DNA from: Lusitaniella coriacea LEGE 07157
GTDB taxonomy: Bacteria > Cyanobacteriota > Cyanobacteriia > Cyanobacteriales > Spirulinaceae
DNA length: 64,000 nucleotides
Assembly (NCBI RefSeq): GCF_015207425.1
Contig: NZ_JADEWZ010000027.1
Span: 1-64,000 of the forward strand
Direction: 5' to 3'
Positions 16,406 through 39,215 of this stretch are shown here, in pieces. The position numbers were made by a program, and so were the translations under genes. The notes under the pieces were generated by a model that ran no database searches, was not told the origin of the DNA, and was given only the letters and a program-made list of their open reading frames with translations. Each line of letters starts with the position of its first letter. The first letter of the stretch is position 1.

Positions 16406-17965
16406 CTATTGTAGAGAACGTTGCACGGGAATTTTAACAATAAATTCTGTCCCTTGTTGGAGTTGTGAATGACAGTCCAAGGATCCGCGATGGCGTTCGA
16501 CAATGATTTGTTGGCTAATGGATAAACCCAAACCCGTTCCTTTGCCTAGAGATTTTGTGGTGAAGAAGGGTTGAAATAATTGTGCTTTCGTTTCCTCGCT
16601 CATGCCAATTCCATTGTCTAGAATACGAATGAGAATGGTGTTCTCTTTCTCGATTTCCGTGCGAACCCAGATTGTTGGTTTTTCCCGAATGGACTGAAAG
16701 ATTTTTCCTTTCATTTCTAAGGCATCAATAGCATTTCCCATGAGGTTCATAAAGACTTGGCTTAATTGTCCGGGATAGCAATCAATAACTTGAGAAAAAC
16801 TACGATATTCTGTGACAATTTTAATTTCTCGGTCGCACTGATTGTGTTTTAAACGATACCGTAAAATCCGGAATGTGTTATCTAGTAATTCCCGAATATC
16901 GACCTGCTGTGTTTGAGTATCGTCAAGACGCGAAAAATTCCGCAAGCTCAGAACAATGTCTTGAATTCGTTGCGTTCCACTCTCCATTGAATTCAAGATT
17001 TGAAGAAGATCCTCGCAGACAAAATCTAACTCAATTTCTTCAATTGCCTCTTGAATATCTGGAGTTGCTTGGGGAAAGGCACTTTGATAGAGTTTGAGAA
17101 TATTTAGTATATCCATTGCATACCGTTGTGCGTAGCCCAAGTTACCGCTAATAAAATTTAGGGGGTTATTGATCTCATGAGCAACTCCTGCAACTAATTG
17201 TCCCAAATCCGACATTTTTTCAGCTTGAATCAGTTGCATTTTTGCCTTTTTCAATTGATTCAAGGTGTGACCGAGTTCTTGTGCTTTTGCTTGGGTAACT
17301 GCTGTCGCCGTCTGACTTTTTTCATACAGTTCTGCTTGGTAGCAATCGATTGCTAATTCTTGTTCTTCTTTTTCCCGTTGGTATTGACTAACGGCAATAT
17401 CTAAAGCCTGTAGTAAGCTGTGGGAAGAAGCGGAAATAAGTTGTTTGAGGTGGGAATTGTTCTGGGAAAGTTCGGTTTGGGGTGCGTAAGCGAGGTTTCT
17501 TCCTGCTTGGATAAAGTTACGAATCTGATGGTCGAGATAAAAGGGCGCTTCGTAGTAAATGGTATAAAGTTTTGGGGAACAGTTTCCTGGCAATTGCATT
17601 TCTGCGTCCCCTTTCAACAAAGCGTTGTGAGATTTTTCCATTAAATTGAGAACGTCAATTAATTCTTTTCGCAGGGAAATCTGTCCGTCTGTATCGCACG
17701 CACAAACGAGTTGAAGTCCGTATAGAGCTGCTCTTTGGGAGAGCATTCGCTGTCGTCCGCTAATGTTAATCACGGCAGCATTTATTTTTCGCGTAATTGC
17801 GATTCGATCCCAATCAAAATAGCTAATCAAGGCGATTACAGGTAAAAGAAATAAAAGAACTTTGGGAGATCGGAGTTTAGAGAAGTCCGATGGCTCAAAA
17901 GCTTGAGGAACTTGGTTGATGAAGGTTCCTGAATCGATGGAAATTTGAGGTTGAAGAAGAGGCAT
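16406..17965 (-). CDS. Membrane histidine kinase with PilJ-type sensor domain
   Basis: A sensor histidine kinase. A hydrophobic segment (VLLFLLPVIALISYF) precedes a PilJ/NarX-type extracytoplasmic helical domain marked by ISGRQRMLSQRAALYGL, followed by a coiled coil and a kinase core: VAHEINNPLNFISGNL with the phospho-acceptor His (304 in the longer 560-residue frame), N box NLMGNAIDALE, and G boxes DNGIGM and GKGTGLGLSI. The second anchoring membrane segment is not obvious. I chose the ATG at 17965; an in-frame ATG at 18088 would add 41 residues lacking domain character. The PilJ-type domain suggests sensing of nitrate-like or other small ligands. No response regulator is adjacent. Confidence 0.82.
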   Translation of the reverse strand: MPLLQPQISIDSGTFINQVPQAFEPSDFSKLRSPKVLLFLLPVIALISYFDWDRIAITRKINAAVINISGRQRMLSQRAALYGLQLVCACDTDGQISLRKELIDVLNLMEKSHNALLKGDAEMQLPGNCSPKLYTIYYEAPFYLDHQIRNFIQAGRNLAYAPQTELSQNNSHLKQLISASSHSLLQALDIAVSQYQREKEEQELAIDCYQAELYEKSQTATAVTQAKAQELGHTLNQLKKAKMQLIQAEKMSDLGQLVAGVAHEINNPLNFISGNLGYAQRYAMDILNILKLYQSAFPQATPDIQEAIEEIELDFVCEDLLQILNSMESGTQRIQDIVLSLRNFSRLDDTQTQQVDIRELLDNTFRILRYRLKHNQCDREIKIVTEYRSFSQVIDCYPGQLSQVFMNLMGNAIDALEMKGKIFQSIREKPTIWVRTEIEKENTILIRILDNGIGMSEETKAQLFQPFFTTKSLGKGTGLGLSISQQIIVERHRGSLDCHSQLQQGTEFIVKIPVQRSLQ

Positions 17966-18088
17966 GAGCGGGTTGGATTGTAGATACTTGGAAGTAGGAA
18001 AAATCACAGCAAAAACTGATGAGTTCGTGTTATTTTTCCACCCTGAATTGAAATCTTTAGCAAAGAGAAATAAATGGAAATTGAGCAT

Positions 18089-18538: not shown

Positions 18539-19768
18539 TCAATGGGACATTTTTGACCAATACCGACAGGCCTGTTTGTCGGTAAACCGCAGCAGGCAAG
18601 GCGCTCCTAATGGGAGGTTATGGGAAGGGAACGATGGCTTGATGGCTAAGGCTTGCAGGACTTGGCGCGCGATCGCGCGTCCGAGTAAAGGGGGAACTGC
18701 ATTCCCCACTTCCCGAAACCCGTGCCATTTGGTGGCGTGGAGGCGAAACCAATCGGGAAAGGAGTGTAATCGTGCCGCCTCTCGGACGGAAATCACGCGA
18801 TCGCGCGCCGGATGAAGGGGACGGGGTGCTGTGTGCGCGCCGCGTTCGGCTCCTGTCCCCGCACGCAGGGTATAGCAGCGTCCCTCCCAATCCAAACGCT
18901 GCAAGCGGCTGATCGGTTCCTTTGCGCCGGGGAGAGTTTGGCGAAAACGCGCGATGCTCGTTGCGGTGTGGCGGGTTTGCCAGGAATTGGTTAGGAGCAA
19001 AGGGTTCCACTGGCGCGGATAGGCAAAATTTTCCCCATCCACGCACAAGTCTCGCAATTGCCGCACGTAAGGACTTGCCTTGGCTTCTAAAGCGTCGATC
19101 CAATGGGGTTTGAGGAGAACCTCATCCCCCCGTTGCAACTGGACAAATCCATCGAGATCCGGCAAGTCCGCGATCGCGTCACGGACTGTAACCCCCTTCC
19201 CTTTAAACGGCTTGGGATAAGTAAGAGGATTTTCCCCCTGTCGCGTTCCCAATAAAAATAAGCGCCGGCGATCCTGCGGAACCCGAAAATCAGCCGCATT
19301 TAAAACCTTAACCCGCTCGGTAATCCCATAACCCGCATTTCTGAGATCCCGCTTGAGTCGCCGCAGCAATCGTTTATTATTTTCGTGCATCAACCCCGGC
19401 ACATTCTCCATCACAAAATAGCGGGGTTGCACCTCCCGAACCAAACGGCAGAAATGAAAAACTAAGCCGTTGCGATCGTCTTTAGGGTTGTGCTTTCCCA
19501 TCACAGAAAAACCTTGACACGGCGGTCCCCCAAAAAGCAAATCGATCTCTTGCGCAACAGCGTTTTGTAATTGTTCTCCAGAGAGTTGAGTCACATCAAC
19601 CCTCAGAACTTGGGTTTGGGGAAAATTAAACGCATAAACCGCCGCGTGAACGGGATCGCTTTCAACAGCAACAACGACTTCAAATCCTGCTTGCTCGACT
19701 CCCAAGGAAAATCCACCTGCGCCTGCAAATAAGTCAACTGCAACGGGTCTGCCTCGATCTCTCGCCAT
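18539..19768 (-). CDS. Orphan C5-cytosine DNA methyltransferase
   Basis: A 409-residue cytosine-5 DNA methyltransferase with the canonical motifs in order: DLFAGAGGFSLG (I), GGPPCQGFS with catalytic C84 (IV), MENVPG with E121 (VI), RRRLFLLGTR (VIII), TLRAGTG (IX), and REAARLHSFP...GNAVPP (X). The target-recognition region lies between VIII and IX. No restriction endonuclease gene is next to it, so it looks like a solitary methylase. Cyanobacteria with abundant HIP1 sites often carry an orphan C5 enzyme acting on CGATCG (Synechocystis Slr0214 type); assigning that specificity here is inference. The C-terminal 30 residues beyond motif X are variable. Confidence 0.9.
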   Translation of the reverse strand: MARDRGRPVAVDLFAGAGGFSLGVEQAGFEVVVAVESDPVHAAVYAFNFPQTQVLRVDVTQLSGEQLQNAVAQEIDLLFGGPPCQGFSVMGKHNPKDDRNGLVFHFCRLVREVQPRYFVMENVPGLMHENNKRLLRRLKRDLRNAGYGITERVKVLNAADFRVPQDRRRLFLLGTRQGENPLTYPKPFKGKGVTVRDAIADLPDLDGFVQLQRGDEVLLKPHWIDALEAKASPYVRQLRDLCVDGENFAYPRQWNPLLLTNSWQTRHTATSIARFRQTLPGAKEPISRLQRLDWEGRCYTLRAGTGAERGAHTAPRPLHPARDRVISVREAARLHSFPDWFRLHATKWHGFREVGNAVPPLLGRAIARQVLQALAIKPSFPSHNLPLGAPCLLRFTDKQACRYWSKMSH

Positions 19769-19817: not shown

Positions 19818-20276
19818 TTAGCGGTTGTATTCTGCAATTAGGGGAAGCTGGACTAAATTCAACCAAAAATTTTCAATCTTGTCGATTGCTTCTGTAAATT
19901 CGTCGAAGTCAAAGGGTTTGCTTACGTAACAACTGGCATAAAGTTGGTAACTTTTAATGATATCTCGGTCGGCTTGGGAAGAAGTGAGAATGACTACCGG
20001 AAGCGCCTTGAGTTGCGGATCGGCTTTGATTTCGGCTAAAACCTCAAACCCATGCTTTTTTGGCAAATTTAAGTCCAAAATCATCAGATGGGGACGGGGG
20101 TAATGGCAATATTTTCCCTTCTGATACAAAAAATCCATTGCTTCTTCCCCATCAATGACGTGGTGGAGGCGATGGGGAATGGAACCATTCTTGAAAGAGT
20201 TACGAATGAGATAAACATCGCCGGGATTGTCTTCACAAAGAAGAATTTCAATCGGTGCTTGAATAGAAGAAGTCAT
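19818..20276 (-). CDS. Single-domain response regulator (Rcp1-like)
   Basis: A 152-residue stand-alone receiver. The acidic pair is in LLCEDNPGD, the phospho-acceptor is D68 (LMILDLNLPKKHGFEVL), the conserved Thr/Ser is in VILTSSQ and the Lys in YVSKPFDFDEF. The extended insertion after the third strand is typical of Rcp1-type regulators paired with phytochrome or other cyanobacterial kinases. The ATG at 20276 is chosen because the domain starts a few residues later. It is third in a leftward series after the ethylene-receptor-like kinase (21683-24184) and the REC-GGDEF gene, and may take phosphate from that kinase. Confidence 0.88.
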   Translation of the reverse strand: MTSSIQAPIEILLCEDNPGDVYLIRNSFKNGSIPHRLHHVIDGEEAMDFLYQKGKYCHYPRPHLMILDLNLPKKHGFEVLAEIKADPQLKALPVVILTSSQADRDIIKSYQLYASCYVSKPFDFDEFTEAIDKIENFWLNLVQLPLIAEYNR

Positions 20277-20413
20277 GGAATTGATGGCTTTTAAATGAAA
20301 AAATTGATGTGCGATCCCCAAAGGATCTTCCTTCAACAGCACGCGAATGCTCTTCCGTTTTTTAGACAGAACATTCTCTGTTATAGATCCTATTGAGACT
20401 GGTACGATGAGCT

Positions 20414-21442
20414 TTAAGCGTTTGGCTCATTGTATTCAATGCGATCGCGTCCTCGCTGTTTGGCTAGATAGAGAGCTTTGTCCGCCATCGCAATCAAGGT
20501 TGTGGATTGAGTCTTTCCCTCTGGGATTATTGTAGCAACACCGAAACTCAAGGTAATGCGATCGCGGATAGGCGATGCAGGATGAAAGAGATTTAATACC
20601 CAAATATCCGCCTGAATTTGCCGAACCACCACCATTGCTCCTGCGCGATCGGTATCGGGTAGAATGGCTAAAAATTCCTCTCCTCCATAGCGAGCGACTA
20701 AATCTTTCGGACGTTTCAGCGTCTGCTGAATGGAATGAGCAACTTGCTTTAAACACTCATCCCCAAGGGGATGTCCGTAGGTATCGTTGTAGGGTTTGAA
20801 AAAATCAATATCCATCATGATAATTGAGAGCGGCATTGCATTTCTCAGGGAATTTTTCCACTCTCGCTCCAATAACTCTGCCACAGAATATCGGTTGGCA
20901 ATCCCCGTAAGGTGGTCGGTCATCGAGCGCTTTAATAAGTTTTTCAGTTGTTCGTTCTTCTCCCTTAATTCGATAGTTCTTTCCTCAACACGCTCCTTCA
21001 ATTCTTGATTGAATTGTTGTAATTGTTCCTCATTTCGACGTAATTTCTCCAAAAGTTGGGCGCGTTCGAGTGCATACCGAATCGAACGAATCAAAACTTC
21101 CGCACTCACTTGCTCTTTGACTAAATAATCTTGAGCGCCGTGGCGTACCGTTTCAACGGCAAGGGTTTCATCCTTTGAACCCGTTAGAACTACAGTTGGA
21201 ATGTGAGAGGCGTGACAAGCCAGATTCAAAAAAGTATCTAATCCTTGACTATCGGGAAGAGAGAGGTCTAATAAAATGATTCCAAATGAGTTTTCATGAA
21301 TACACTGAATGGCTTCTTCGAGCCTTGAAACAGACATCAACTCGAAGTCAGTAGTATGGGTTTGTTTTAACATCTCTCGGATCAAAAAAATATCTCCAAG
21401 ATTGTCTTCAACTAATAAAATGTTAATAAAATTGCTATTCAT
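20414..21442 (-). CDS. Response regulator with GGDEF diguanylate cyclase
   Basis: A 342-residue protein: receiver domain (residues 7-125, D59 in IILLDLSLPDSQG), a coiled-coil linker of about 45 residues (ELKERVEERTIELREKN) and a GGDEF domain with an intact GGEEF active site (residues 253-257) and the MDIDFFKPYNDTYGH substrate loop. It should make cyclic di-GMP from two GTP when phosphorylated and dimerised through the coiled coil. An RxxD inhibitory site is not evident in the expected place. It lies directly downstream of the ethylene-receptor-like kinase on the same strand, separated by about 240 bp that hold a MITE-like element. Confidence 0.9.
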   Translation of the reverse strand: MNSNFINILLVEDNLGDIFLIREMLKQTHTTDFELMSVSRLEEAIQCIHENSFGIILLDLSLPDSQGLDTFLNLACHASHIPTVVLTGSKDETLAVETVRHGAQDYLVKEQVSAEVLIRSIRYALERAQLLEKLRRNEEQLQQFNQELKERVEERTIELREKNEQLKNLLKRSMTDHLTGIANRYSVAELLEREWKNSLRNAMPLSIIMMDIDFFKPYNDTYGHPLGDECLKQVAHSIQQTLKRPKDLVARYGGEEFLAILPDTDRAGAMVVVRQIQADIWVLNLFHPASPIRDRITLSFGVATIIPEGKTQSTTLIAMADKALYLAKQRGRDRIEYNEPNA

Positions 21443-21682: not shown

Positions 21683-24184
21683 TTAGTCTTGAGCGTATCG
21701 AGGCAATGTAAAATAAAATGTCGATCCCTCTCCGAATTGCGATTCGACCCAAATTTTTCCCCCATGACCTTCGACAATTTTTTGGCAAATCGCTAAACCA
21801 ATACCCGTTCCCGGATATTCTTCCTTGGTGTGTAGGCGTTGAAAGATTAGGAAAATCTGTTTTTGGTATTGAGGGGCAATACCCATTCCATTATCGGAAA
21901 TCCAAAATAACCAACTATTTTTTTGCTCCCGAACACCGATGTTGATTTTGAGCGGGCGCTCGCTGTGGTACTTAATCGCGTTGCTGAGGAGGTTTTGGAA
22001 GAGTTGAACGAGTTTTCCGCGATCGCCTTGTAGGGTGGGTAAGGGAGATCGCGCGATCGCGTGATTCACTTCCTCCAGGAGGATCTTTAAATTAGCCAGA
22101 ACGCTATCTAACACTTTATCGCAATCAATTATTTGCAGATTTACCTTACGTCCCAAACGAGAGTAGGTCAATAAATCGTCAATCAATGCTTGCATTCGGA
22201 TTGCCCCATCCACAGCAAAATGAATAATCCTATCCGCTTCTGCGTCGAGTCGTCCCGAATAGCGTTGTGATAGTAATTTGGTGAAGCTTGTTACCATGCG
22301 CAGGGGTTCTCGTAAGTCGTGGGATGCAACATAGGCAAATTGTTCAAGTTCTTGATTGGACTGTCGAAGTTCGGCGTTCACTTGCAATAATTGCTGCTCG
22401 GCATCTCTGCGATCGCTGATATCAATACAAGACCCAATGTAGCCTGTAAAGTTGCCTTGGGGAGTAAATCGCGGGATTCCGGAATTGAGTACCCAGCGAT
22501 ATGCGCCATCTACTCGTCTGATTCGGTATTCTATTTCAAAGGATTTGCGAGCTTCAAATGCCGCTAAATAAGTATCGAGACAATATTGTAAATCTTCAGG
22601 ATGAACGCTTTCTGTCCAACCTTTTCCTACTTCTTGTTTCAAGGTTCGTCCGGTAAAATCTAACCAAATCTGATTGAAAAAAGAACACTTCGCGTCCGTT
22701 CCGGACATCCAAATCAAAACCGGAGCGCTATTTGCCATCGAACGAAATCGTTCTTCGCTTTCTCGCAGTGCTTCTTCTACTTGTTTGCGATCGCGAATAT
22801 CTTTGTGGGTTCCAGTCATGCGCAAGGGTTGACCCCTCTCATCGCGAGCAACAACTTTGCCATAATTCCCAATCCATTGCCATTCCCCTGCCTTGTTTCG
22901 CATCCGATAATCGAAGTTGTAGGGAACAGAAAAATCCTTCAGGTATGCGTCTAATTGCTTCATAACCCAGGGTTTATCCTCTGGATGGATTAACTTCTCC
23001 CAAGTGCTAAAACTTTCGGGAAGTTCGCCGACTTCATAATCCAGCATTTCCAGCCATTCCCGGCTTAAATAAACCTCTCCCGTGGCGATATTCCAGTCCC
23101 ATATTCCCTCCTGAGAGGCTTCGAGAGCTAACTGCAAGCGCTCTTCACTCTCTTTTAATGCGGCGGTTCGTTCTTCAACGCGGCTTTCGAGTTCCTCGTT
23201 TAAGCGTCGTAGCGCTTCTTCGGTTTCCTGTCGTTGCAAAGTATTGGTAAGAATTTCTGCAAACATTTTCAACAGTTGAGTGCTGCTGGGGGACCAAACT
23301 TGCTCTTTGTCACAGCAGGCAAAACCAACCCAACCCAAAACGCGATCGCGGAATGCCATTGGGACGCAAATGAGGGACTTGAGGTTAAAAGGTTGCCAAC
23401 TGCGGCAATCGATTATTGCTTCAGGTAAGTTAGCAATGCTAGGAACGTGGAGTATTTCGCCGTTGAGTAGCTTTGAGGTTGACCAGGGAAACGCCTTGTA
23501 GGGAACATTTTTTGCCTGTTCGATTCGGGGAGTTTGTCCCGGTGCAACCCATTCATGGGTCATTGTGAAGGTCGCGCGATCGTCGGAGAGTTGAAAAATA
23601 TAACTGGTATCCGCTTGGATAAATTCGGCAATTTCCTGCAAGGCTTGGTTAATGCCTTCGGTGATATTTTCCAGTTTTAAATTGATGAAACGAGTGGAAA
23701 TTTTAGAGATCGCGCGATCGAATTGAAGTTGGTATTCAAGATTGGCTTCGGCTTGTTTGCGTTCGAGAATTTCCCTTTCTAGGTTTTGATTGGCTGCTTC
23801 GAGTTCCCCTGCACTGGGGATAGCTAAGGCTCGGGGAAGAATGGGAACTATTGCGATTGCGGTGTAGCCAGATACCAATGCAGTGCCTGCTTTGATGAAC
23901 CCCGATAGCCAGTATGCCGGATGCCACAGCGTCCAAATTGCCATAAGGTGAGTGGTTCCGCAACTGAGGATAAAAAGACTGAAGAGAATAAATACATTTT
24001 TAAAGGGAATATTTGTGCGATTGCGAACAAAGTAGAGCAGGAGTAAAGGAATGGAGTAGTATGCCAGAGCAATCAGTCCGTCGGAGAAAACGTGTAATCT
24101 AATGAGTTCCGATTGCCACAAATAGCACTGTCCGTGAGGCATATAGGAGTGCGAGAAGAATAAATCTCGAATAAATTCCAGCAT
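21683..24184 (-). CDS. Ethylene-receptor-like hybrid sensor histidine kinase
   Basis: An 833-residue kinase. Residues 25-115 form a three-helix membrane domain closely resembling the ethylene-binding domain of plant ETR1 and cyanobacterial Slr1212. With an offset of ten from ETR1 numbering, all reported binding residues are present: D35, Y42, I45, P46, I72, C75 and H79, the last two being the copper ligands in LSCGTTHL. Then follow a GAF domain (about 160-320), a coiled coil, two PAS/PAC domains (about 345-470 and 475-595), the HisKA domain with H622 in ASHDLREPLR, and an ATPase domain (LLSNAIKYHSE, DNGMGI, GTGIGLAIC). The last lack of a fused receiver implies separate partners; the two response regulators downstream are the obvious candidates. 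Confidence 0.92.
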   Translation of the reverse strand: MLEFIRDLFFSHSYMPHGQCYLWQSELIRLHVFSDGLIALAYYSIPLLLLYFVRNRTNIPFKNVFILFSLFILSCGTTHLMAIWTLWHPAYWLSGFIKAGTALVSGYTAIAIVPILPRALAIPSAGELEAANQNLEREILERKQAEANLEYQLQFDRAISKISTRFINLKLENITEGINQALQEIAEFIQADTSYIFQLSDDRATFTMTHEWVAPGQTPRIEQAKNVPYKAFPWSTSKLLNGEILHVPSIANLPEAIIDCRSWQPFNLKSLICVPMAFRDRVLGWVGFACCDKEQVWSPSSTQLLKMFAEILTNTLQRQETEEALRRLNEELESRVEERTAALKESEERLQLALEASQEGIWDWNIATGEVYLSREWLEMLDYEVGELPESFSTWEKLIHPEDKPWVMKQLDAYLKDFSVPYNFDYRMRNKAGEWQWIGNYGKVVARDERGQPLRMTGTHKDIRDRKQVEEALRESEERFRSMANSAPVLIWMSGTDAKCSFFNQIWLDFTGRTLKQEVGKGWTESVHPEDLQYCLDTYLAAFEARKSFEIEYRIRRVDGAYRWVLNSGIPRFTPQGNFTGYIGSCIDISDRRDAEQQLLQVNAELRQSNQELEQFAYVASHDLREPLRMVTSFTKLLSQRYSGRLDAEADRIIHFAVDGAIRMQALIDDLLTYSRLGRKVNLQIIDCDKVLDSVLANLKILLEEVNHAIARSPLPTLQGDRGKLVQLFQNLLSNAIKYHSERPLKINIGVREQKNSWLFWISDNGMGIAPQYQKQIFLIFQRLHTKEEYPGTGIGLAICQKIVEGHGGKIWVESQFGEGSTFYFTLPRYAQD

Positions 24185-24308: not shown

Positions 24309-24344
24309 AGTGCGATCCCTGCGGGATCTGCCAAAAGGCAGCAC
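24309..24344. repeat. Compact structured repeat (two hairpins inside a closing stem)
   Basis: GTGC and GCAC close a segment containing GATCCC-tgc-GGGATC and TGCC-aaaa-GGCA, a three-way-junction layout. Elements of this look are common between cyanobacterial genes. It sits in the gap between the cupin gene and the ethylene-receptor-like gene. It could end leftward transcripts weakly, but lacks a T-run. Confidence 0.45.
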
Positions 24345-25815: not shown

Positions 25816-26040
25816 ATGAAAGTTCAATATCTGACCACCATCGCAACAGTAACCTTACTGAGTTTAGGATTAACAGTAGGTTGTACCAATCCTTGTGCGA
25901 GTAAAGAAGTAGCACCAAGCGACGCAACCACAGAAACGGAAGTTAATCCCTGCGCGGCAAAAGAAGGTAATCCTTGTGCAGGTAAAGAGGGCAATCCCTG
26001 CGCGGGTAAAGAAGGTAATCCTTGTGCGGGTAAAGAATAG
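25816..26040 (+). CDS. Small lipoprotein of NPCA(A/G)KEG repeats
   Basis: A 74-residue protein: signal peptide with lipobox TVGC (lipidation at C23), then a low-complexity mature region. NPCASKE is followed by a Thr/Glu linker, NPCAAKEG, and three NPCAGKE units, giving one Cys per eight residues. A GGTAGG-like ribosome site lies before the ATG. Regular Cys and charged residues could bind metal or form disulfides in the periplasm; this is inference. The DNA repeat units are 24 bp. Similar NPCA-rich short proteins occur in other cyanobacteria, function unknown to me. Confidence 0.75.
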   Translation: MKVQYLTTIATVTLLSLGLTVGCTNPCASKEVAPSDATTETEVNPCAAKEGNPCAGKEGNPCAGKEGNPCAGKE

Positions 26041-26196
26041 GATATTACTTGAAATTGACGGGAATCTGCCAAAAGGAAAAAATATAGTTAGAAATTGAAG
26101 GATTCTGCAAACTAAACGAGCGAAGGGTATTAACTTATGATAGGCTGTCGTGCATCTCAGTTTCGCAGTCCATAAAATGCTCTTCGCGTTCAATTT

Positions 26197-29405: not shown

Positions 29406-30920
29406 TTATTCAATCCAATTTTTTGCGCGATCGACGGCTTTCTTCCACAGGGTAAAGTTAGCTTGGGCTTGGGTTGCACCCGTACCGGGTTCAAAAACGC
29501 GATCGATTTTACGGTTGCTCACTAAGGTGTCGTAGGAGTCCCAGAACCCAACAGCTAAACCCGCAGCAAATGCCGCGCCTTGGGCGGTTGCGTCGAGAAC
29601 GGCGGGGCGTTCGACGGGAATGCCGAGTACGTCGGCTTGGAACTGCATCAGGAAGTTATTGTTACAGGCTCCGCCATCGACTTTTAGGGTTTGAATGGGC
29701 GTTCCGCTATCTTCGTTCACCGCTTGGACGACTTCTTTGGCTTGGTACGCGATCGCCTCTAGAACGGCACGTACCATCTGTTCTCGCTGCACGCCTCTGG
29801 TAATGCCTAAAAAGGCTCCGCGCGCGTTCATGTCCCAGTGAGGCGCGCCTAGACCGCTTAGGGCGGGAACGAAGTAAACCCCCCCATTGTCTTCTACTTG
29901 ATTTGCCATTGCTTCAGTTTCTGCGGCAGTTTCAATGAGTTTTAATCCGTCTCGCAACCACTGAATACACGCCCCTGCGGTAAACATACTCCCTTCGAGG
30001 GCATAGCCAAGGGTGGGGGATTCGCCGGAGGCGGCTTGACTCCAGGCGATGGTGGAGAGGAGGTAGTTCTGGGAGCGCGCGATCTCCGAACCCGTGTGGG
30101 ACACTAAAAAGGCTCCCGTTCCGTAAGTGCATTTCAACGAACCCGGACGGTTGCATCCGTGGGCAAACAACGCCGCCTGCTGATCTCCCAAAATCGCGGT
30201 AATCGGAATCTCAACCCCAAGTAACTTTGGATCGGTGCGTCCAAATTCTCCCAAACTGGTTTGGATCTTCGGCATGATTTCCCCAGGAATGCCAAAGCGG
30301 TCGAGCAGGGTTGCGTCCCAAGTCCCGGTTTTAAGATCGAGTAACATCGTCCGGCTGGCATTGCTGTGGTCGGTGGCGTGGACTTTCCCACCGGTCAAAT
30401 TCCACAGCGCCCAAGTGTCGATGGTTCCGGCGAGAACGTTGTCCCAATTAACCGATTGATGGGTTTTGACCCAATCGATCAGCCAGTTTAATTTGGTGGC
30501 AGAGAAGTAAGCATCGAGGACTAATCCCGTGCGATTGTAAATGTCGTCAACATACCCTTCTTCTCGGAGTTTGTTGCACAGGGGGGCGGTGCGACGATCT
30601 TGCCACACGATAGCGTTGTGCAGGGGTTTTCCGGTGGTTTTGTCCCACAAGAGACAGGTTTCTCGTTGTACGGTGAGTCCGATCGCGGCAATCTGACGGG
30701 GAGCAATTTCCGCGTCCTTAAGAACGGTTTGCATTGCCCAATTCAAATCTTGCCAAATTTCTGTGGGATCGTGTTCGACCCATCCCGGTTGGGGATAATA
30801 TTGCGTGAGTTCTTTGTAAGCTTGAGCGGCGATTTGACCTGCTCGATCGAAGAGGATGGCTCGATTCCCGGTGGTTCCGAGGTCGAGGGCCATAATGTAG
30901 TTGGGGGAGTTGCTGGTCAT
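29406..30920 (-). CDS. glpK: Glycerol kinase
   Basis: A 504-residue FGGY-family kinase of normal length. The ATP-phosphate motif MALDLGTTGNRAILFD, the glycerol-site region AIVWQDRRTA, GDQQAALFAHGC and the C-terminal signature VDGGACNNNFLMQ...AAFAAGLAVG are intact. It makes glycerol 3-phosphate from glycerol and ATP. It lies 26 bp downstream of gghA on the same strand, an arrangement that salvages glycerol released when glucosylglycerol is hydrolysed. Confidence 0.95.
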   Translation of the reverse strand: MTSNSPNYIMALDLGTTGNRAILFDRAGQIAAQAYKELTQYYPQPGWVEHDPTEIWQDLNWAMQTVLKDAEIAPRQIAAIGLTVQRETCLLWDKTTGKPLHNAIVWQDRRTAPLCNKLREEGYVDDIYNRTGLVLDAYFSATKLNWLIDWVKTHQSVNWDNVLAGTIDTWALWNLTGGKVHATDHSNASRTMLLDLKTGTWDATLLDRFGIPGEIMPKIQTSLGEFGRTDPKLLGVEIPITAILGDQQAALFAHGCNRPGSLKCTYGTGAFLVSHTGSEIARSQNYLLSTIAWSQAASGESPTLGYALEGSMFTAGACIQWLRDGLKLIETAAETEAMANQVEDNGGVYFVPALSGLGAPHWDMNARGAFLGITRGVQREQMVRAVLEAIAYQAKEVVQAVNEDSGTPIQTLKVDGGACNNNFLMQFQADVLGIPVERPAVLDATAQGAAFAAGLAVGFWDSYDTLVSNRKIDRVFEPGTGATQAQANFTLWKKAVDRAKNWIE

Positions 30921-30946
30921 GGGTAAAGGGTAAGGGATTTCAACAC

Positions 30947-33478
30947 TTATTTCGCAGTTGGGCGGCGCGCTTCGAGTAAAAAGCCTTGTCCGTCTTTGAG
31001 TTCCATTCCGGGGAGATTTTCGAGGGTTTTATCGATTTTGAGATCCGGGGACGCGATCGCGAGTTGCCATTGAGACAGATCGAGATTCAACCAATCTTTC
31101 AATTGCGCGATCGCGGGTTTGCCGCCCATGTGAGCCACTAAAACCACCCTCCGATCGCGATCTGTCGGTTTGCGCCTCGGTGCGGTACGCATCCCGTAAA
31201 AAATCGTTTTCTCCTCATCTCGAACGCTATTAAACCGATCGCGCTCTCCCAAATTCTCCCGCAACCAAGGATTTTCATGGCGATAGTTGCGTAAAGCTAA
31301 ATTAAAACAACTGCGTCCAGACTCTATTGCCGAATGATAGCGGGCAACGCGGCACAGTTCGTAACCATCTTCCATAAATGCCATCGCAAAGGCTTCGAGT
31401 TTAGGAATATCTAACAAGGCAAGAAATTCGGGTTTATCCGCTTGATTGAGATTTTTGAGCGGTTCGATTTCGCAGACTCCCGGCGTATCGCTCAAGCAGT
31501 ACTGACAAATCTGCGCGACTTTCTCCAGATCGTAATCCGTTTCCACAATCGCGATCGCTAAGGCTTTGACAAACTGCCGCAATACCTCCAATTTATTGAA
31601 CCCCAAGGCTTTGAGTCGAGGAAATGCATCGGGTTCCTCGTAGAGTTCGGGGGTCACTTGCCAGTCGAGAAAGCCCGCTTCCTCCGACACGACCTTCACC
31701 CCGTAACGAGTATCCGTATTGCGGAAAAATCCCCAACTGCCGCGCATCAAGGCATTGAGAAAATCCATCGGCAGTCCGGGACTAAAGCCGTAAACCCAGA
31801 GATAGGTTGCGGGGTTGTCGTAGGCATTGTTGATGACTTCCGGCAATGTTTCCCCTAAATTCCAATCGATCTTTTCGCTGAGAGCAACTTGGTTGCCCCG
31901 ACGCACGGTGTCGTGGTTGGCACAACCTGTAATCCAGCGATCGCCTTTAAACATCACTTCGCAAACGCGCTGCCACTTCTGCGCCCAAAATCCTTGCAGG
32001 GTGGGAGTATTATGGGCAAAAATCAACGGACCCCACTGGTAAGATTCCGGTTTGAGGGCAATTAAATCGCGATAGGTGGATTTCTTTTCCCATCCCTCTT
32101 CAGGCCAAGGTCGTCCGTCCTCAAAAATGGTGAAGAGCAAGCGCTGGTAGCCGTCAATCTCCTGTACCACGTCGCTCATTGCTAGCAGGTAGGGATCGTC
32201 CTGTTCGATGCGCCCGGTAAGGGGGTTGAAGAAGCGAAAATCCTGTCCCCCATCAATACGAATTCCATCTGCGCCCGTATTGAGTTTGCGCTGTTGCATC
32301 TCCAAAAGAATTGCCCGAACGATGGGGAGTTGGTGGTTTAAGTCCTGCCCGTACATATTCGGCCCTTTGAAGAACTGGCGGTTAATCAGTTCTATCGCTT
32401 GGTTGTCGGCGTGTCCGTAGACGAGATCGTAGATGAGTTGAATGGGGCCTTGGGAAAAATTGTGCAAGGTGGCAATGAAATCCACCAATTCATCGGGGCG
32501 CAAACTGCCCAGGAGGGCGGGATTGGTTGTCGTGGAGCCTAAAATGGGAACGTCGTAGCCCCAGTTTTGCGTATTGGGTTTTCGCAGGGTGATGGAGATC
32601 GGGCGATTGAAGGAGACTTTTTCGGGTTCGAGTTCGCTGTCTCCCGCGATCGCGAAAAATTCGTGTGCTTCATTCCCATCGTCCAAACGGTACTCAATCG
32701 TGGGTTCGATGGGCAGCAGTTGAATCGCATCGTAGCCGACGTAATTTTCTTGTGCGGGGGTTAAGGGTTCTTTGTTGGCAAGCTTTTGGGAAATTTGGCG
32801 ATAAATCTGCGTTAACCCTTCAAAGGTTCCCTCGGCAGAAGCCGTACCCACATGAATTTGTAGAATGTTCACCGGTGCGGGAACCCTCGGCAAAACAATC
32901 TCAGAAAGCGATGCTCTAGAGATCAAGGCGGTAGGAAGGGCCGTTCTTTGAAAATAGCTGCGATCCGCCCGGTTCTGTTGCAATTGCTCCATATCGTACA
33001 ACTCTGCCGGGGCAAAGGAACCGTAAGGTAAGGAGTTGGCAAAAACATCCCGAATGACGTGCATCACGCCCTGGACGTTATCGTAGTACCGCAACCAATA
33101 AAAAGATCCTGCTTGTTCCCGCGTTCCCGGCTGCAATCCCGAAAGCACGCCCCAGACGAATTCTCCCTGTTGGGGTAAGGGAATAGAGTCTCGACGGAAG
33201 GGAATGGTTTGTTGGGGAGCGCGAAAATCAATAGTTTCTAGAGGGGTGAACACTTCGAGATAAATTTCTCGCTCGGTTTGAATGACCTCTGCGGTCAGTT
33301 CGGGAGTCCAAAACCCCAGTTGAGTCAGTCCATCTTCTCGATAGTGCGCGCCCAATTGCGAGACTAATTGTTGTGCCTTATGGAAATAGCTATCTTCTGA
33401 TTCAGCAACGGCTGTAGCCCAGCTTTGGAGCGCTTTTGTCTCGCCCTCGACAAGTTTGATGTGTTGTGAAATATCCAC
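30947..33478 (-). CDS. gghA: Glucosylglycerol hydrolase
   Basis: An 843-residue GH13-related hydrolase. A long N-terminal domain precedes a barrel with GADGIRIDGGQDFRFF (nucleophile Asp), FTIFEDGRPW (acid-base Glu) and TGCANHDTVRRG (stabilising Asp). Length and sequence style match the GghA proteins of salt-tolerant cyanobacteria (Synechocystis Slr1670), which cleave glucosylglycerol to glucose and glycerol during hypo-osmotic shock. The gene is divergent from the synthesis genes and followed by glpK. Being cytosolic, it must be restrained at high salt, in known cases by ions and not by expression alone. Confidence 0.88.
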   Translation of the reverse strand: MDISQHIKLVEGETKALQSWATAVAESEDSYFHKAQQLVSQLGAHYREDGLTQLGFWTPELTAEVIQTEREIYLEVFTPLETIDFRAPQQTIPFRRDSIPLPQQGEFVWGVLSGLQPGTREQAGSFYWLRYYDNVQGVMHVIRDVFANSLPYGSFAPAELYDMEQLQQNRADRSYFQRTALPTALISRASLSEIVLPRVPAPVNILQIHVGTASAEGTFEGLTQIYRQISQKLANKEPLTPAQENYVGYDAIQLLPIEPTIEYRLDDGNEAHEFFAIAGDSELEPEKVSFNRPISITLRKPNTQNWGYDVPILGSTTTNPALLGSLRPDELVDFIATLHNFSQGPIQLIYDLVYGHADNQAIELINRQFFKGPNMYGQDLNHQLPIVRAILLEMQQRKLNTGADGIRIDGGQDFRFFNPLTGRIEQDDPYLLAMSDVVQEIDGYQRLLFTIFEDGRPWPEEGWEKKSTYRDLIALKPESYQWGPLIFAHNTPTLQGFWAQKWQRVCEVMFKGDRWITGCANHDTVRRGNQVALSEKIDWNLGETLPEVINNAYDNPATYLWVYGFSPGLPMDFLNALMRGSWGFFRNTDTRYGVKVVSEEAGFLDWQVTPELYEEPDAFPRLKALGFNKLEVLRQFVKALAIAIVETDYDLEKVAQICQYCLSDTPGVCEIEPLKNLNQADKPEFLALLDIPKLEAFAMAFMEDGYELCRVARYHSAIESGRSCFNLALRNYRHENPWLRENLGERDRFNSVRDEEKTIFYGMRTAPRRKPTDRDRRVVLVAHMGGKPAIAQLKDWLNLDLSQWQLAIASPDLKIDKTLENLPGMELKDGQGFLLEARRPTAK

Positions 33479-34053
33479 GCTCGCATAGATAATGATGAGG
33501 ATCGACGAACTTATAATGTTAGGTATTAAAAGCGTTTTAATTGTAAATTTCTCTACTAATAGCGACCGTAACCTAAAATAGTCGTCTGGTGCAATCCGAT
33601 CGCGAACAATTGTTACTTTCCTTAAATCTTTGAGATTGAGAATTTTTTGAAAAGATTGGGATCGATGTTAAACTAAAGAGCGTTTGTTGAATTTGTGCGA
33701 TCGTCTGGTTGTATTCACTGTTTTTGAATTGAATATTCAACTTTTAAATCGACCGCGTGACTGTTATTTTTGGACATGGGTATCGTGCTAACCTTCTAAT
33801 TAAATAGGTTAGTGACAATAGGTGTATTTCAAGCGAATTTCTGTCGCAGTTGAAGACCCTAAATAAATTGAGTTTCCTCGAATATATACTCAATTTTTTC
33901 GAGTGAATCTCACGCGATCCTTACGCGAAGTTTTGTGCAAATGATGGGTTACTGCCGTAATGCCACAGCGCGATCGCGCTGTGGCGGCAATCCATTGACA
34001 AAGCGACTCTTGCTGTTTATCGGGATGTTGTTTCTACAACAAATTAAATTAAA
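33479..34053. promoter_or_regulatory. Divergent control region of the glucosylglycerol locus
   Basis: About 575 bp separate the starts of gghA (left) and the HAD phosphatase (right). No frame in it looks coding. It contains AT-rich patches and a perfect 24-bp palindrome at 33962-33985. Promoters for both degradation and synthesis must lie here, so this is where salt control of the locus would be set. I cannot name a specific promoter element. Confidence 0.6.
33962..33985. promoter_or_regulatory. Perfect 24-bp palindrome containing HIP1
   Basis: The arm GCCACAGCGCGA is followed by its exact complement, giving 12-bp dyad symmetry around the HIP1 core. It lies 68 bp before the phosphatase start. 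It could be a dimeric regulator site, a transcription terminator for an unseen leftward or rightward RNA, or a HIP1 site with extended symmetry. No T-run follows on either side. Confidence 0.5.
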
Positions 34054-34788
34054 ATGAATGCTAACCACGCTCTAGTTCTGGCGACCGATCTAGATGGTAC
34101 GTTTTTAGGCGGTTCAGATCGACAGCGCGCAGAATTTTATCAGTATATCGAGCAGTGGCGCGATCGCGTTCTGCTCGTTTTTGTCACCGGACGAGACTTA
34201 GACTTCATCAACGGACTCTGCGAAGACCCCGCCTTCCCCAAACCCGATTACATCATCGGCGATGTCGGCACGACCATCGTGCGCGGCGCAACCCACGACC
34301 CCGTACCAGAGGTACAAGATTGGGTCGCACAGCGTTGGGGCAATGCCAACGCGCGAGTCAAACAGATGTTAGAGGGCGAACCCGGTTTGGAATTGCAACC
34401 CGTCGATACCCAACGGCGCGTTTCCTACTACTACAAACCGGAAAAATTGCAAGAAAGTACGGTCAAAAAAATCGAAGATGCGGGCTTTGATTGCATCCTT
34501 TCCGCAGATGTCTACCTCGATGTCATGCCCAAAGGAATTTCCAAAGGACCCACCCTCCTAAAATTCATCGACGTAATGGGATTAAACGCCGAGAACGTCA
34601 TTCCTTGCGGCGACACCCTCAACGACCTCTCCCTCTTTGAAACCGGACTCAAAGGCGTTGCAGTCGGCAACTCAGAACCCAAACTCGTTGAAAAAATCAA
34701 AACAATGGAGAACGTCTACCACAGCCCCCATCCCGGCGTAGCTGGCATTTGGGACGGGCTGAAAGTGTACGGCAAACATCCCGCTTAA
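34054..34788 (+). CDS. HAD phosphatase, candidate glucosylglycerol-phosphate phosphatase (SPP-like)
   Basis: A 244-residue HAD-IIB phosphatase of the sucrose-phosphate-phosphatase type. Motif I is ATDLDGTFLGG (D12 nucleophile, D14), motif II lies in FVTGRDLDF, motif III is the Lys in KGISKGPTLLKF, and motif IV is CGDTLNDLSLF. By sequence alone one would say sucrose-6-phosphatase, but it sits directly upstream of ggpS in a glucosylglycerol cluster. In several heterotrophic bacteria an HAD phosphatase domain is fused to the GgpS domain (GgpPS), while Synechocystis uses the unrelated-looking StpA/GgpP. I infer this gene supplies the phosphatase step here. Confidence 0.72.
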   Translation: MNANHALVLATDLDGTFLGGSDRQRAEFYQYIEQWRDRVLLVFVTGRDLDFINGLCEDPAFPKPDYIIGDVGTTIVRGATHDPVPEVQDWVAQRWGNANARVKQMLEGEPGLELQPVDTQRRVSYYYKPEKLQESTVKKIEDAGFDCILSADVYLDVMPKGISKGPTLLKFIDVMGLNAENVIPCGDTLNDLSLFETGLKGVAVGNSEPKLVEKIKTMENVYHSPHPGVAGIWDGLKVYGKHPA

Positions 34789-35036
34789 ATACAGTTAACA
34801 GTCAGCAGTTATCAGTGAGGGAGAAAGGAAGCAGGGGAAGATGCTTTTGATGATGTGGAGACAGTTTGAACTCTCACCTCATACTTCATAACTCACGCTT
34901 AATGCGTACTAGAAGTTAAAACTCTTACTCTGCGGTAATTCCTCCTTACTCTTCCCTGTTCCCTATTCCCTTGTCCTAGCAAAGGTTTCAGGGTGTTCAC
35001 ATCAGGCGTAACTCATAACTCTAAAAGAGGTATTCC

Positions 35037-36548
35037 ATGAAATCATCCCTTGTCATTCTCTACCACCGAGAACCCTACGACGAAGTTGTCGAAAACGGCA
35101 AAGTCTTCTATCGGGAAAAGAAAAGTCCCAACGGCATTCTCCCCACCCTAAAAAGCTTCTTCGCCAATGCCGAACGCAGTACCTGGGTTGCTTGGAAACA
35201 AGTAACCACCAAACAGCGCTCCAACTTCCAAGACTGCATGACCTTTGAGGGACTCAACGAAAATTGCGTCGTGCGTCGCATTCCCCTCGCGCCAGAACAG
35301 GTCAAAAACTTTTACCACATCACCTCCAAAGAAGCCTTTTGGCCGATCCTACACTCCTTTCCCTGGCAGTTTGCCTACGACTCTTCTGATTGGGAAAACT
35401 TCAAGCACATCAACCAACTCTTTGCCAAAGCCGCTTGCGAAGATGCCGCAGACGACGCGCTGATTTGGGTTCACGACTATAACCTGTGGCTGGCTCCCTA
35501 CTATATTCGCCAGCAAATGCCCCATGTTAATATTGCCTTCTTCCACCACACTCCCTTCCCCTCCGCCGATATCTTCAATATTTTGCCTTGGCGGGAAGCC
35601 ATTGTGGACAGTCTGCTCGCCTGCGATTTGTGCGGGTTCCATATCCCCCGCTACGTGGAGAATTTCGTCTCTGTGGCAAGAAGCGTGCGCGATGTTGAAA
35701 TTGTGAAACAGATTCCCGTCGATCCCTCCTTCACTCCCTATGGGACGGCACTCGCCGAACCCCGAATGACCGCTCAACTGCGCTATAACAATCGAACCGT
35801 CGAACTTGATGCGTTTCCTGTGGGAACCAATCCCTCATACATTCGCAGTATCGTTGAAAAAGATACCGTAAAGGAGCGAGTTAAAGAAATTCGAGCAGAT
35901 GTTGGGAATAACAAGCTAATCGTCTCTGCGGGGCGCGTGGACTACGTAAAGGGAACCAAGGAAATGCTCCTGTCCTACGAACGCTTGCTCAACCGCAAAC
36001 CCGATTTACACGGCAAGGTGAATTTAATCGTGACGGCGGCAGCACCCGCACAAGGAATGCGAGTGTATAAAACCGCTCAGAGTGAAATCGAGCGACTGGT
36101 GGGCAAAATTAACGGACGCTTTGCCAAGCTCAATTGGACTCCCATTTTGTTATTTACTGCACCCCTAGATTTTGAAGAGTTGATGGCGGTGTATCGAGCG
36201 GCAGATATTGCCTGGATTACACCCTTGCGGGATGGATTGAATTTAGTGGCGAAAGAGTTTGTTGTCACCCATGCAGATGAAGGGGGCGTGCTGATTCTTT
36301 CGGAATTTGCTGGGTCTGCGGTAGAGTTGCCGAGTGCTGTGCTAACCAATCCTTATTCCTTCCACCATATGGACGAAGCGATCGATCGCGCGCTGACAAT
36401 GCCTGAAGATGAGCAAAAAGAGCGCATGGGTCAAATGTATCGTGCGATTTGCCGCTACGACGTTCAGCAGTGGGCAAACCATATGTTCCGAGAAGCGAAA
36501 GCAGCAGCAACGAATGCAACCTCCGAAGAAAACCTGACCTTAGCTTAA
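35037..36548 (+). CDS. ggpS: Glucosylglycerol-phosphate synthase
   Basis: A 503-residue GT20 glycosyltransferase related to trehalose-6-phosphate synthase. Key stretches are VHDYNLWLAPYYIRQQMP, the phosphate-binding SAGRVDYVKGTKEMLLSYE and the C-terminal DGLNLVAKEFVVTHADEGG. Length and context identify GgpS, which joins ADP-glucose to glycerol 3-phosphate. A GAGG ribosome site precedes the ATG. It is preceded by the phosphatase gene, with 248 bp between that contain a short heptamer-like repeat and possibly an own promoter, and followed 4 bp later by glpD. In known systems enzyme activity is directly salt-activated. Confidence 0.93.
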   Translation: MKSSLVILYHREPYDEVVENGKVFYREKKSPNGILPTLKSFFANAERSTWVAWKQVTTKQRSNFQDCMTFEGLNENCVVRRIPLAPEQVKNFYHITSKEAFWPILHSFPWQFAYDSSDWENFKHINQLFAKAACEDAADDALIWVHDYNLWLAPYYIRQQMPHVNIAFFHHTPFPSADIFNILPWREAIVDSLLACDLCGFHIPRYVENFVSVARSVRDVEIVKQIPVDPSFTPYGTALAEPRMTAQLRYNNRTVELDAFPVGTNPSYIRSIVEKDTVKERVKEIRADVGNNKLIVSAGRVDYVKGTKEMLLSYERLLNRKPDLHGKVNLIVTAAAPAQGMRVYKTAQSEIERLVGKINGRFAKLNWTPILLFTAPLDFEELMAVYRAADIAWITPLRDGLNLVAKEFVVTHADEGGVLILSEFAGSAVELPSAVLTNPYSFHHMDEAIDRALTMPEDEQKERMGQMYRAICRYDVQQWANHMFREAKAAATNATSEENLTLA

Positions 36549-36552
36549 AATC

Positions 36553-38232: not shown

Positions 38233-38261
38233 TCATTGATGACTGATAACCGATAACTGAA

Positions 38262-39215
38262 ATGACCCCAACCCCCTCCTCCCAACCCTCCACCACCCTA
38301 ACCATCCTCGGTCGCGGTGCCTGGGGAACCGCCCTCGCCAACCTTGCGCGCATCAACAACACCCCCGTTCAAACCTGGTCTTATCGCAGTGGAGACCCCC
38401 TTGAACCTGTTGTCAGCAACGCTAAGGTGATCCTTTCGGCGATCTCTATGAAAGGCGTTGCAGAACTCGCCACGCGCCTGAAAACCCTCCCCTTAGAATC
38501 GGACGTTATTTTTGTTACTGCAACCAAAGGCTTAGACCCTGCAACGAAACGCACTCCCTCCCAAATCTGGCAAACCACTTTCCCAAACCACCCCGTTGCC
38601 GTCCTTTCCGGGCCCAACCTCTCAAAAGAAATTGACCTCGGTTTGCCCGCCGCGACCGTTATTGCCAGCGAAGACCTAGCAGCAGCAGAAACCGTACAAG
38701 AATTATTCTCCTCCGATACCTTTCGGGTTTACACCAATACCGACCCCTTGGGAACAGAACTAGGGGGGACCCTAAAAAATGTCATGGCGATCGCGGTTGG
38801 GGTGTGCGACGGCCTTAAACTAGGAACCAACGCCCGTTCCGCATTAGTGACTCGCGCCCTCCCCGAAGTCATGCGCATCGGAACCCTCCTTGGCGGACAA
38901 GCAGAAACCTTCTACGGTTTGTCCGGACTCGGCGATATGCTGGCAACCTGCACCAGTCCCCTCAGCCGCAACTATCAAGTGGGTTACGGTTTAGCCCAAG
39001 GGAAAGCCTTAGATGATATTCTCGAAGAATTGGGCAGTACCGCAGAAGGCGTTAATACCACCTACGTGTTGATCGATCGCGTGTACGATGAGGGTATTTC
39101 TGCTCCCATTGCATGGCAAGTTTACCGCCTTCTCAAAGGAAAAATCACCCCCCAAGAAGCGGTCGCCGCCCTGATGGAGAGAGAATTAAAGCCGGAATAT
39201 TGCGACTTGCCATAG
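38262..39215 (+). CDS. gpsA: NAD(P)H-dependent glycerol-3-phosphate dehydrogenase
   Basis: A 317-residue soluble dehydrogenase with the N-terminal nucleotide-binding motif ILGRGAWGTALA (GxGxxG variant), the catalytic FVTATKG and VLSGPNLSKE stretches, and the C-terminal GLSGLGDMLATCTS. It reduces dihydroxyacetone phosphate to glycerol 3-phosphate, the acceptor for GgpS and the backbone for membrane lipids. It begins 29 bp after glpD, making it the last gene of the phosphatase-ggpS-glpD-gpsA operon. Its length is normal for the family. Confidence 0.95.
   Translation: MTPTPSSQPSTTLTILGRGAWGTALANLARINNTPVQTWSYRSGDPLEPVVSNAKVILSAISMKGVAELATRLKTLPLESDVIFVTATKGLDPATKRTPSQIWQTTFPNHPVAVLSGPNLSKEIDLGLPAATVIASEDLAAAETVQELFSSDTFRVYTNTDPLGTELGGTLKNVMAIAVGVCDGLKLGTNARSALVTRALPEVMRIGTLLGGQAETFYGLSGLGDMLATCTSPLSRNYQVGYGLAQGKALDDILEELGSTAEGVNTTYVLIDRVYDEGISAPIAWQVYRLLKGKITPQEAVAALMERELKPEYCDLP

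What the first reader, a model, noticed from the sequence alone, without database searches (positions are those of the whole stretch)
21683..24184. Ethylene-receptor-like kinase with all seven binding residues
The N-terminal domain keeps D35, Y42, I45, P46, I72, C75 and H79, exactly ten positions from the residues reported as needed in plant ETR1. Known cyanobacterial receptors of this type act on phototaxis. Here the domain is linked to GAF-PAS-PAS-kinase.
Basis: partly seen in the sequence, partly recalled or inferred. Interest (0 to 1): 0.8.

Follow-up and report, generated by a model that had tools for sequence, protein, structure and literature searches.

The report
Cyanobacterial ethylene receptor histidine kinase
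This is one of six ethylene-receptor-type sensor proteins in a cyanobacterium, a well-documented kind of protein; its neighbours suggest it may pass the gas signal to an enzyme that makes the messenger cyclic di-GMP.

Summary
The 833-aa ORF at 24184..21683 (minus strand) begins with an ETR1_N domain (Pfam PF25487, E 2.7e-40), followed by GAF-PAS-PAS-HisKA-HATPase. D35, Y42, I45, P46, I72, C75 and H79 sit exactly where stated and align with ETR1 D25, Y32, I35, P36, I62, C65 and H69; K98 matches K91. The proven receptor AzoEtr1 has the same eight residues at the same numbers (PMC11819568). It is not exceptional: 74 of 292 sampled phylum genomes carry ETR1_N, 117 of 167 ETR1_N ORFs examined keep all seven residues, and this genome has six ETR1_N proteins, three with all seven. 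Its GAF lacks the bilin-cysteine motifs I searched for, unlike the light-sensing SynEtr1. Beside it, same strand, lie a receiver-GGDEF protein with intact motifs and a single receiver. Best explanation: a copper-dependent ethylene receptor kinase whose phosphorelay sets c-di-GMP output and a second receiver-mediated output. Ethylene binding, phosphotransfer and co-transcription are inferred. Geitlerinema GeiEtr2 is already reported beside a diguanylate cyclase gene, so this is a new member of a known kind.

The parts
21683..24184 (-). ethylene-receptor-type sensor histidine kinase, 833 aa (ETR1_N-GAF-PAS-PAS-HisKA-HATPase)
   Evidence: ORF, Pfam; H622 in SHDLREPL, N and G boxes present
23819..24106 (-). 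ETR1_N three-helix membrane domain, residues 27-122, with D35 Y42 I45 P46 I72 C75 H79 and K98
   Evidence: Pfam PF25487 E 2.7e-40; place; alignment; AF2 helices 25-55, 62-87, 91-112
23243..23653 (-). GAF domain, residues 178-314, without the cyanobacteriochrome cysteine motifs searched for
   Evidence: Pfam, motif scan by regular expression
22805..23074 (-). PAS domain 1 (PAS_3), residues 371-460
   Evidence: Pfam
22418..22753 (-). PAS domain 2, residues 478-589
   Evidence: Pfam
22151..22348 (-). HisKA dimerisation and phosphoacceptor domain, residues 613-678
   Evidence: Pfam; H622
21698..22027 (-). HATPase_c, residues 720-829
   Evidence: Pfam
20414..21442 (-). response regulator with diguanylate cyclase output (REC-GGDEF, 342 aa), likely phosphorelay partner
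   Evidence: Pfam; D59, I-site RPKD and active site GGEEF intact; same strand, 240 nt after the kinase
19818..20342 (-). single-domain response regulator (174 aa as listed from GTG; start uncertain), likely second partner
   Evidence: Pfam; receiver D90; 71 nt after the GGDEF gene; 53-55% identical to regulators beside ETR1_N kinases in L215, L242, L248, L250, four genomes of one genus

Best explanation
A membrane-bound bacterial ethylene receptor of the two-component kind. Three transmembrane helices hold a copper ion on C75 and H79 (positioned by D35); ethylene binding at the copper is passed through helix 3 (K98), the GAF and two PAS domains to the HisKA-HATPase kinase. Phosphate goes from H622 to the neighbouring receivers: D59 of a REC-GGDEF protein, which would set c-di-GMP synthesis, and D90 of a single-domain regulator, which would act by protein contact. 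The output is then a shift in surface life, biofilm or motility mode, in answer to ambient ethylene. Shown: the ORF, the domains, all seven binding residues plus K98 in register with a proven receptor, intact kinase and cyclase motifs, gene order. Inferred: copper and ethylene binding, kinase control by ethylene (direction unknown), phosphotransfer to the two neighbours, c-di-GMP change, phenotype.
For: Pfam ETR1_N E 2.7e-40. All seven residues and K98 match AzoEtr1 at identical numbers; AzoEtr1 binds ethylene, and its D35 and C75 correspond to ETR1 D25 and C65, mutation of which eliminates binding in ETR1 (PMC11819568 passages). Three-helix AF2 model. Intact HisKA/HATPase, receiver, I-site and GGEEF motifs. 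A REC-GGDEF protein lies within the next two same-strand genes of 14 of 148 ETR1_N kinases (window included) against 2 of 175 kinases in 80 named loci (p 6e-4) and 1 of 35 other kinases in the same stretches (p 0.31, not significant); pooled 3 of 210, p 6e-4, or 0.001 with the window left out. In L215, L242, L248 and L250 the PAS-PAS-kinase part (39-40% identity), the single receiver (53-55%) and the receiver of the REC-GGDEF protein (45-49%) recur together around another ETR1_N kinase, that receiver carrying PAS-HisKA-HATPase instead of GGDEF. The genome has two copper P-type ATPases over the cut-off, two PilT-family proteins over the cut-off and 32 GGDEF matches. Ethylene lowers c-di-GMP in A. 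brasilense, and GeiEtr2 of Geitlerinema is grouped with a diguanylate cyclase gene.
Against: No binding or phosphotransfer data. A 240-nt gap separates the kinase from the REC-GGDEF gene; promoter and terminator scans were near shuffle background, so co-transcription is unproven. By my own domain models exactly this domain order was found only in the window protein among 167 ETR1_N ORFs (these models missed some GAF domains that Pfam sees), and no other locus of those listed showed the same kinase / REC-GGDEF / REC trio with these domains; the nearest is L303 (REC-GGDEF then REC after a different ETR1_N kinase). 134 of 148 ETR1_N kinases have no REC-GGDEF in the next two genes, and against kinases of the same stretches the excess is not significant. 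The four loci that share the module are of one genus, so they count as about one case. GAF or PAS ligands could dominate kinase control.
Confidence: 0.75

Rival explanations
1. An ethylene receptor of the SynEtr1/UirS kind: a combined light and ethylene sensor steering phototaxis through a transcriptional response regulator.
For: Same ETR1_N domain with all seven residues; ethylene affects phototaxis of Synechocystis and Geitlerinema (PMC6682694 passages); PilT-family genes are present.
Against: The window GAF has no bilin-cysteine motif by regular expression, whereas an 841-aa ETR1_N protein in L243, which I take as SynEtr1-like by size and motif only, has CHIEFL. The two neighbouring regulators are REC-GGDEF and REC alone, with no DNA-binding domain found by Pfam.
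Confidence: 0.12
2. A copper, redox or other small-molecule sensor that uses the ETR1-type fold but whose natural signal is not ethylene.
For: The domain is combined with very diverse outputs. Three of six ETR1_N proteins in this genome have changed at least one of the seven residues, so the domain may serve without the full site.
Against: In this protein all seven residues and K98 are kept; a bacterial relative with the same residues binds ethylene and responds to it.
Confidence: 0.12
3. The ETR1_N domain is only a membrane anchor; GAF and PAS domains do the sensing.
For: Domain shuffling: the kinase half is shared with ETR1_N kinases of other make-up.
Against: All seven site residues and K98 are retained, and the N-terminal stretch is 55-62% identical to six of seven named relatives and 40% to the seventh, more than an anchor needs.
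Confidence: 0.05

Closest known systems
AzoEtr1 of Azospirillum brasilense Sp7 (PMC11819568; sequence read from NZ_CP012915.1, L309)
   Same: N-terminal domain with D35 Y42 I45 P46 I72 C75 H79 K98 at the same numbers; a two-component receptor with a response regulator gene beside it (PMC11819568).
   Different: 525 aa against 833 aa, so too short for the same domain chain. I did not scan its domains or neighbourhood with Pfam.
GeiEtr2 of Geitlerinema sp. PCC 7105 (PMC6682694, section 11 read)
   Same: Cyanobacterial receptor with all seven residues, PAS and GAF between sensor and kinase, and a diguanylate cyclase domain gene grouped with it.
   Different: 1025 aa, PAS before GAF, C-terminal receiver domain; the window protein has GAF before two PAS and no receiver.
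SynEtr1 / UirS (Slr1212) of Synechocystis sp. PCC 6803
   Same: Ethylene-binding sensor kinase with a receiver-protein partner (PMC6682694 and PMC5812497 passages).
   Different: SynEtr1 is also a cyanobacteriochrome and signals to slr1213, which raises transcription of CsiR1 and slr1214; the window GAF shows no bilin motif and its nearest partner ends in GGDEF. Its sequence itself was not fetched by name.
Plant ETR1
   Same: Same N-terminal domain and seven binding residues in register (ETR1 typed from recall).
   Different: Plant receptors have two N-terminal cysteines and cyanobacterial ones one (PMC6682694); the window protein has one, C20. SynEtr1, unlike plant receptors, relies on phosphorelay (PMC11819568).

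Membership tests
Bacterial ethylene receptors (ETR1_N two-component kinases) | N-terminal ETR1_N domain over the curated cut-off | tested here: met
   137 bits against 27
Bacterial ethylene receptors (ETR1_N two-component kinases) | Three transmembrane helices | tested here: met
   AF2 helices 25-55, 62-87, 91-112, moderate confidence
Bacterial ethylene receptors (ETR1_N two-component kinases) | Seven residues required for ethylene binding in ETR1, including copper positions C65 and H69 | tested here: met
   DYIPICH in register with ETR1 (recalled) and AzoEtr1
Bacterial ethylene receptors (ETR1_N two-component kinases) | Intact histidine kinase motifs | tested here: met
   SHDLREPL, NLLSNAIKY, DNGMGI, GTGIGLAI
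Bacterial ethylene receptors (ETR1_N two-component kinases) | Saturable copper-dependent ethylene binding | not testable with these tools
   Needs radioligand binding
SynEtr1/UirS light-and-ethylene receptors | Bilin-binding cyanobacteriochrome GAF with canonical cysteine | tested here: not met
   No DxCF or CH-type motif by a crude regular expression; L243 has CHIEFL
SynEtr1/UirS light-and-ethylene receptors | Neighbouring response regulator acting on transcription | tested here: not met
   The two neighbours are REC-GGDEF and REC only
SynEtr1/UirS light-and-ethylene receptors | Control of phototaxis | not testable with these tools
   Needs a mutant
PleD-like diguanylate cyclase response regulators (the neighbour 20414-21442) | Receiver aspartate, GG(D/E)EF active site and RxxD inhibitory site | tested here: met
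   D59, GGEEF, RPKD; REC and GGDEF by Pfam
PleD-like diguanylate cyclase response regulators (the neighbour 20414-21442) | PleD equivalog cut-off of NCBIfam NF007135 | tested here: not met
   179.2 bits against 474; so PleD-like in parts, not PleD itself

The most novel reading that the evidence does not exclude
Ethylene is read directly into c-di-GMP in cyanobacteria: here through a dedicated receptor kinase and REC-GGDEF partner, in a second paralogue of the same genome (L151, with REC-PAS-GGDEF beside it), and in other genomes through single proteins that fuse ETR1_N to GGDEF or GGDEF-EAL. That would make a plant-hormone receptor domain a recurrent input of bacterial second-messenger control and give a route for the unexplained fall of c-di-GMP by ethylene.
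Probability: 0.32. Interest if true: 0.55.

Novelty: new member of a known kind. Interest (0 to 1): 0.33.

Why it matters
Ethylene receptors of plants are thought to descend from cyanobacterial ones (PMC11819568 introduction passage), and in the papers I opened the bacterial receptors under study are those of Synechocystis, Geitlerinema and Azospirillum. A genome with six ETR1_N proteins, three with the full binding site and three with substitutions, is a good place to ask which retain ethylene sensing. The gene order here makes one open question directly testable: whether a bacterial ethylene receptor controls c-di-GMP by phosphorelay to a GGDEF regulator.

Tried and rejected
Phototaxis-type (UirS-like) reading: set lower because the GAF shows no bilin motif and neither neighbour has a DNA-binding domain. 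Solved structures: the profile of the N-terminal domain matches no PDB chain at E up to 10 and Foldseek finds nothing at E <= 0.001, so the model could not be checked against a solved ethylene-binding domain. The genome-contig scan mostly returned kinases without ETR1_N; 7 ETR1_N ORFs were found in its 80 loci, one of them (L133) with REC and REC-GGDEF next to it. A plasmid tblastn hit its 5000-record limit, its listed hits being mostly to the kinase and PAS part, so its counts were not used; only hit H18 was used. The NCBIfam scan shows no equivalog over its cut-off for the kinase or its two neighbours among the 25 rows shown for each. Species identity was not established; that the host is a cyanobacterium rests on a psbA match over the cut-off and on the psbA control ringing only in Synechococcus elongatus. 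Lacey and Binder 2016 (PMC4972284) is not held.

Limits of the counts. My own HMMs, not Pfam, assigned domains, and they missed GAF domains that Pfam finds in L150, L184, L256 and L273. Loci cut by contig ends can hide neighbours. Related genomes are not independent. The window, which prompted the GGDEF question, is inside the 14 of 148. The 175 control kinases come from 80 named loci that include many non-cyanobacteria, and the 35 control kinases of the same stretches give no significant difference (p 0.31). The match list was cut short and some listed lower-scoring matches were not fetched, so the seven-residue share (117 of 167, two of the 167 giving only gaps in these columns) is probably too high for the family as a whole. 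Four of the nine GGDEF fusions have GGEEM or GGEEI in place of GGDEF/GGEEF. The upstream imperfect palindrome (24312-24332) has one exact and four 2-mismatch places in the genome against none for the control: not pursued.

Full report
What is there. The ORF 24184..21683 on the minus strand encodes 833 aa. Pfam finds ETR1_N (27-122, E 2.7e-40, 137 bits, cut-off 27), GAF (178-314), PAS_3 (best stretch 371-460), PAS (478-589), HisKA (613-678) and HATPase_c (720-829). Residues D35, Y42, I45, P46, I72, C75, H79 and also K98 were read directly. Aligned with plant ETR1 (typed from recall) they occupy D25, Y32, I35, P36, I62, C65, H69 and K91. The independent yardstick is AzoEtr1 of A. brasilense Sp7, read from NZ_CP012915.1 (L309), which has the same eight residues at the same numbers; the paper on AzoEtr1 itself maps D25 to D35, C65 to C75, H69 to H79 and K91 to K98 and reports ethylene binding (PMC11819568, passages seen). 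That seven residues are required in ETR1 is stated in PMC6682694 (passages and section 11) and PMC11819568. An AlphaFold2 model from 8 sequences gives three long helices at moderate confidence (pLDDT 77.8, pTM 0.62).

How unusual it is. ETR1_N is found at E <= 0.001 in 74 of 292 genomes sampled from the phylum (72 over the cut-off) and in 13 of 13 of the family, and in 0 of 14 control genomes. Of 167 ETR1_N ORFs in the window and 160 fetched stretches, 117 keep all seven residues and 91 keep the seven plus K; the share is 3 of 6 in the own genome, 19 of 30 in the other family loci fetched and 95 of 131 in the rest. The own genome has six ETR1_N proteins, the most of the 13 family members (the others have 1-5); another genome of the order has nine. 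Their site residues (D25 Y32 I35 P36 I62 C65 H69 / K91, ETR1 numbers) are DYIPICH/K (window), DYIPICH/K (L149), DYIPICH/Q (L150), DYISICH/K (L151), NYISICH/L (L152) and DYIPLCN/K (L153). So a full site is ordinary, and the substituted paralogues are the more curious ones.

Surroundings. Directly after the kinase, on the same strand, come a REC-GGDEF protein (21442..20414) and a single receiver (20342..19818), with gaps of 240 and 71 nt. Receiver aspartates (D59, D90), the I-site RPKD and active site GGEEF are intact. Predicted promoters and terminators are near shuffle background (10 against 8.4, 7 against 5.7), so operon status is not shown. Among ETR1_N kinases 14 of 148 (13 of 147 without the window) have a REC-GGDEF gene among the next two same-strand genes, against 2 of 175 kinases in 80 named loci (p 6e-4) and 1 of 35 other kinases in the same stretches (p 0.31). 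The pooled control, 3 of 210, gives p 6e-4, or 0.001 without the window; none of this is corrected for relatedness, and the named loci include many non-cyanobacteria. The excess is therefore suggestive, not established.

A shared module. BLAST of the pieces against the fetched ORFs shows the single receiver with its four best relatives (53-55%) in L215, L242, L250 and L248, each beside an ETR1_N kinase. The same loci give 39-40% identity to the window kinase from about residue 336 to 828 (ranks 2 to 6 among the non-self hits of the full protein, together with L157), and 45-49% to the receiver of the REC-GGDEF protein over about 134-146 residues; by score that protein has higher hits elsewhere (L156, L265, L160, L167), because those align with the GGDEF part or over the full length. 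In all four loci this receiver is part of a REC-PAS-HisKA-HATPase protein (in L248 it lies about 550 nt beyond the single receiver), and the gene order is single receiver first. All four belong to one genus, so they are about one independent case. My inference is that kinase half, single receiver and first receiver form one phosphorelay set whose output end was exchanged.

A wider point. Nine of 167 ETR1_N ORFs are single proteins fusing ETR1_N to GGDEF, confirmed by Pfam in 9 of 9, two of them with EAL too; 7 of 9 keep all seven site residues; 5 of 9 have GGDEF or GGEEF and 4 of 9 GGEEM or GGEEI. In 15 of 167 ETR1_N ORFs a REC-GGDEF protein is among the next three same-strand genes. This suggests that c-di-GMP is a recurrent, though minority, output of this sensor. 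It is not wholly new: PMC6682694 reports that GeiEtr2 is grouped with a gene for a diguanylate cyclase domain protein (section 11), and PMC11819568 reports that ethylene lowers c-di-GMP in A. brasilense, pathway unknown. In searches pairing ethylene receptor with diguanylate cyclase (26 papers, 15 listed), ethylene-binding domain with GGDEF (4 papers) and ethylene, c-di-GMP, cyanobacteri and SynEtr1 (4 papers) I saw no demonstration of an ethylene-gated diguanylate cyclase in the listings or in the passages read in three of these papers (PMC11819568, PMC6682694, PMC5812497). The other listed papers were not opened, and most subscription papers are not held.

Mechanism. The best-supported account is a copper-dependent ethylene receptor kinase with phosphorelay to a GGDEF regulator and a single receiver. 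The binding site, kinase motifs and cyclase motifs are shown by sequence and the helices by a model; copper loading is plausible given two copper P-type ATPases in the genome; ethylene binding, direction of kinase control, phosphotransfer and phenotype are inferred. The GAF lacks the bilin-cysteine motifs searched for, while an ETR1_N protein of another genome (L243), which I take as SynEtr1-like by size and motif, shows one, so light sensing by this GAF is not expected. Phototaxis cannot be excluded, since PilT-family proteins are present, but biofilm or motility-mode control through c-di-GMP is the more direct reading.

Verdict. Confirmed observation, supported interpretation, ordinary in kind: a new member of the known bacterial ethylene receptors. 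The interest lies in the genome's set of six and in the testable link to c-di-GMP.

Noticed in passing
L149-L153 (G000 contigs C4, C4, C2, C3, C37): Five further ETR1_N proteins in the same genome; L151 has P36S, L152 has D25N, P36S and K91L, L153 has I62L and H69N. L151 has a REC-PAS-GGDEF gene beside it.
   Followed up: partly
L167, L174, L184, L193, L212, L223, L256, L273, L297: Single proteins fusing ETR1_N to GGDEF (L193 and L223 with EAL as well): candidate ethylene-gated c-di-GMP enzymes; L174 is only 295 aa with nothing between sensor and GGDEF by Pfam.
   Followed up: partly
window 29406-39215: Glucosylglycerol and glycerol metabolism genes: glucosylglycerol-phosphate synthase (35037-36548), glycerol kinase (29406-30920), two glycerol-3-phosphate dehydrogenases (36553-38232, 38262-39215), and an 843-aa protein (30947-33478) and a 244-aa protein (34054-34788) with no NCBIfam match at E <= 1e-30.
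   Followed up: partly
window 18539-19768: C5 cytosine DNA methyltransferase just after the single receiver gene on the same strand.
   Followed up: no
window 16406-18088: Another histidine kinase, with a PilJ-type N-terminal match, near the receptor genes.
   Followed up: no
window 24312-24332: Imperfect palindrome upstream of the receptor gene; five places in the genome at up to 2 mismatches, control 0.
   Followed up: partly
window 25824-26072: ORF with a repeated LPAQGLPS-like peptide; no function suggested.
   Followed up: no
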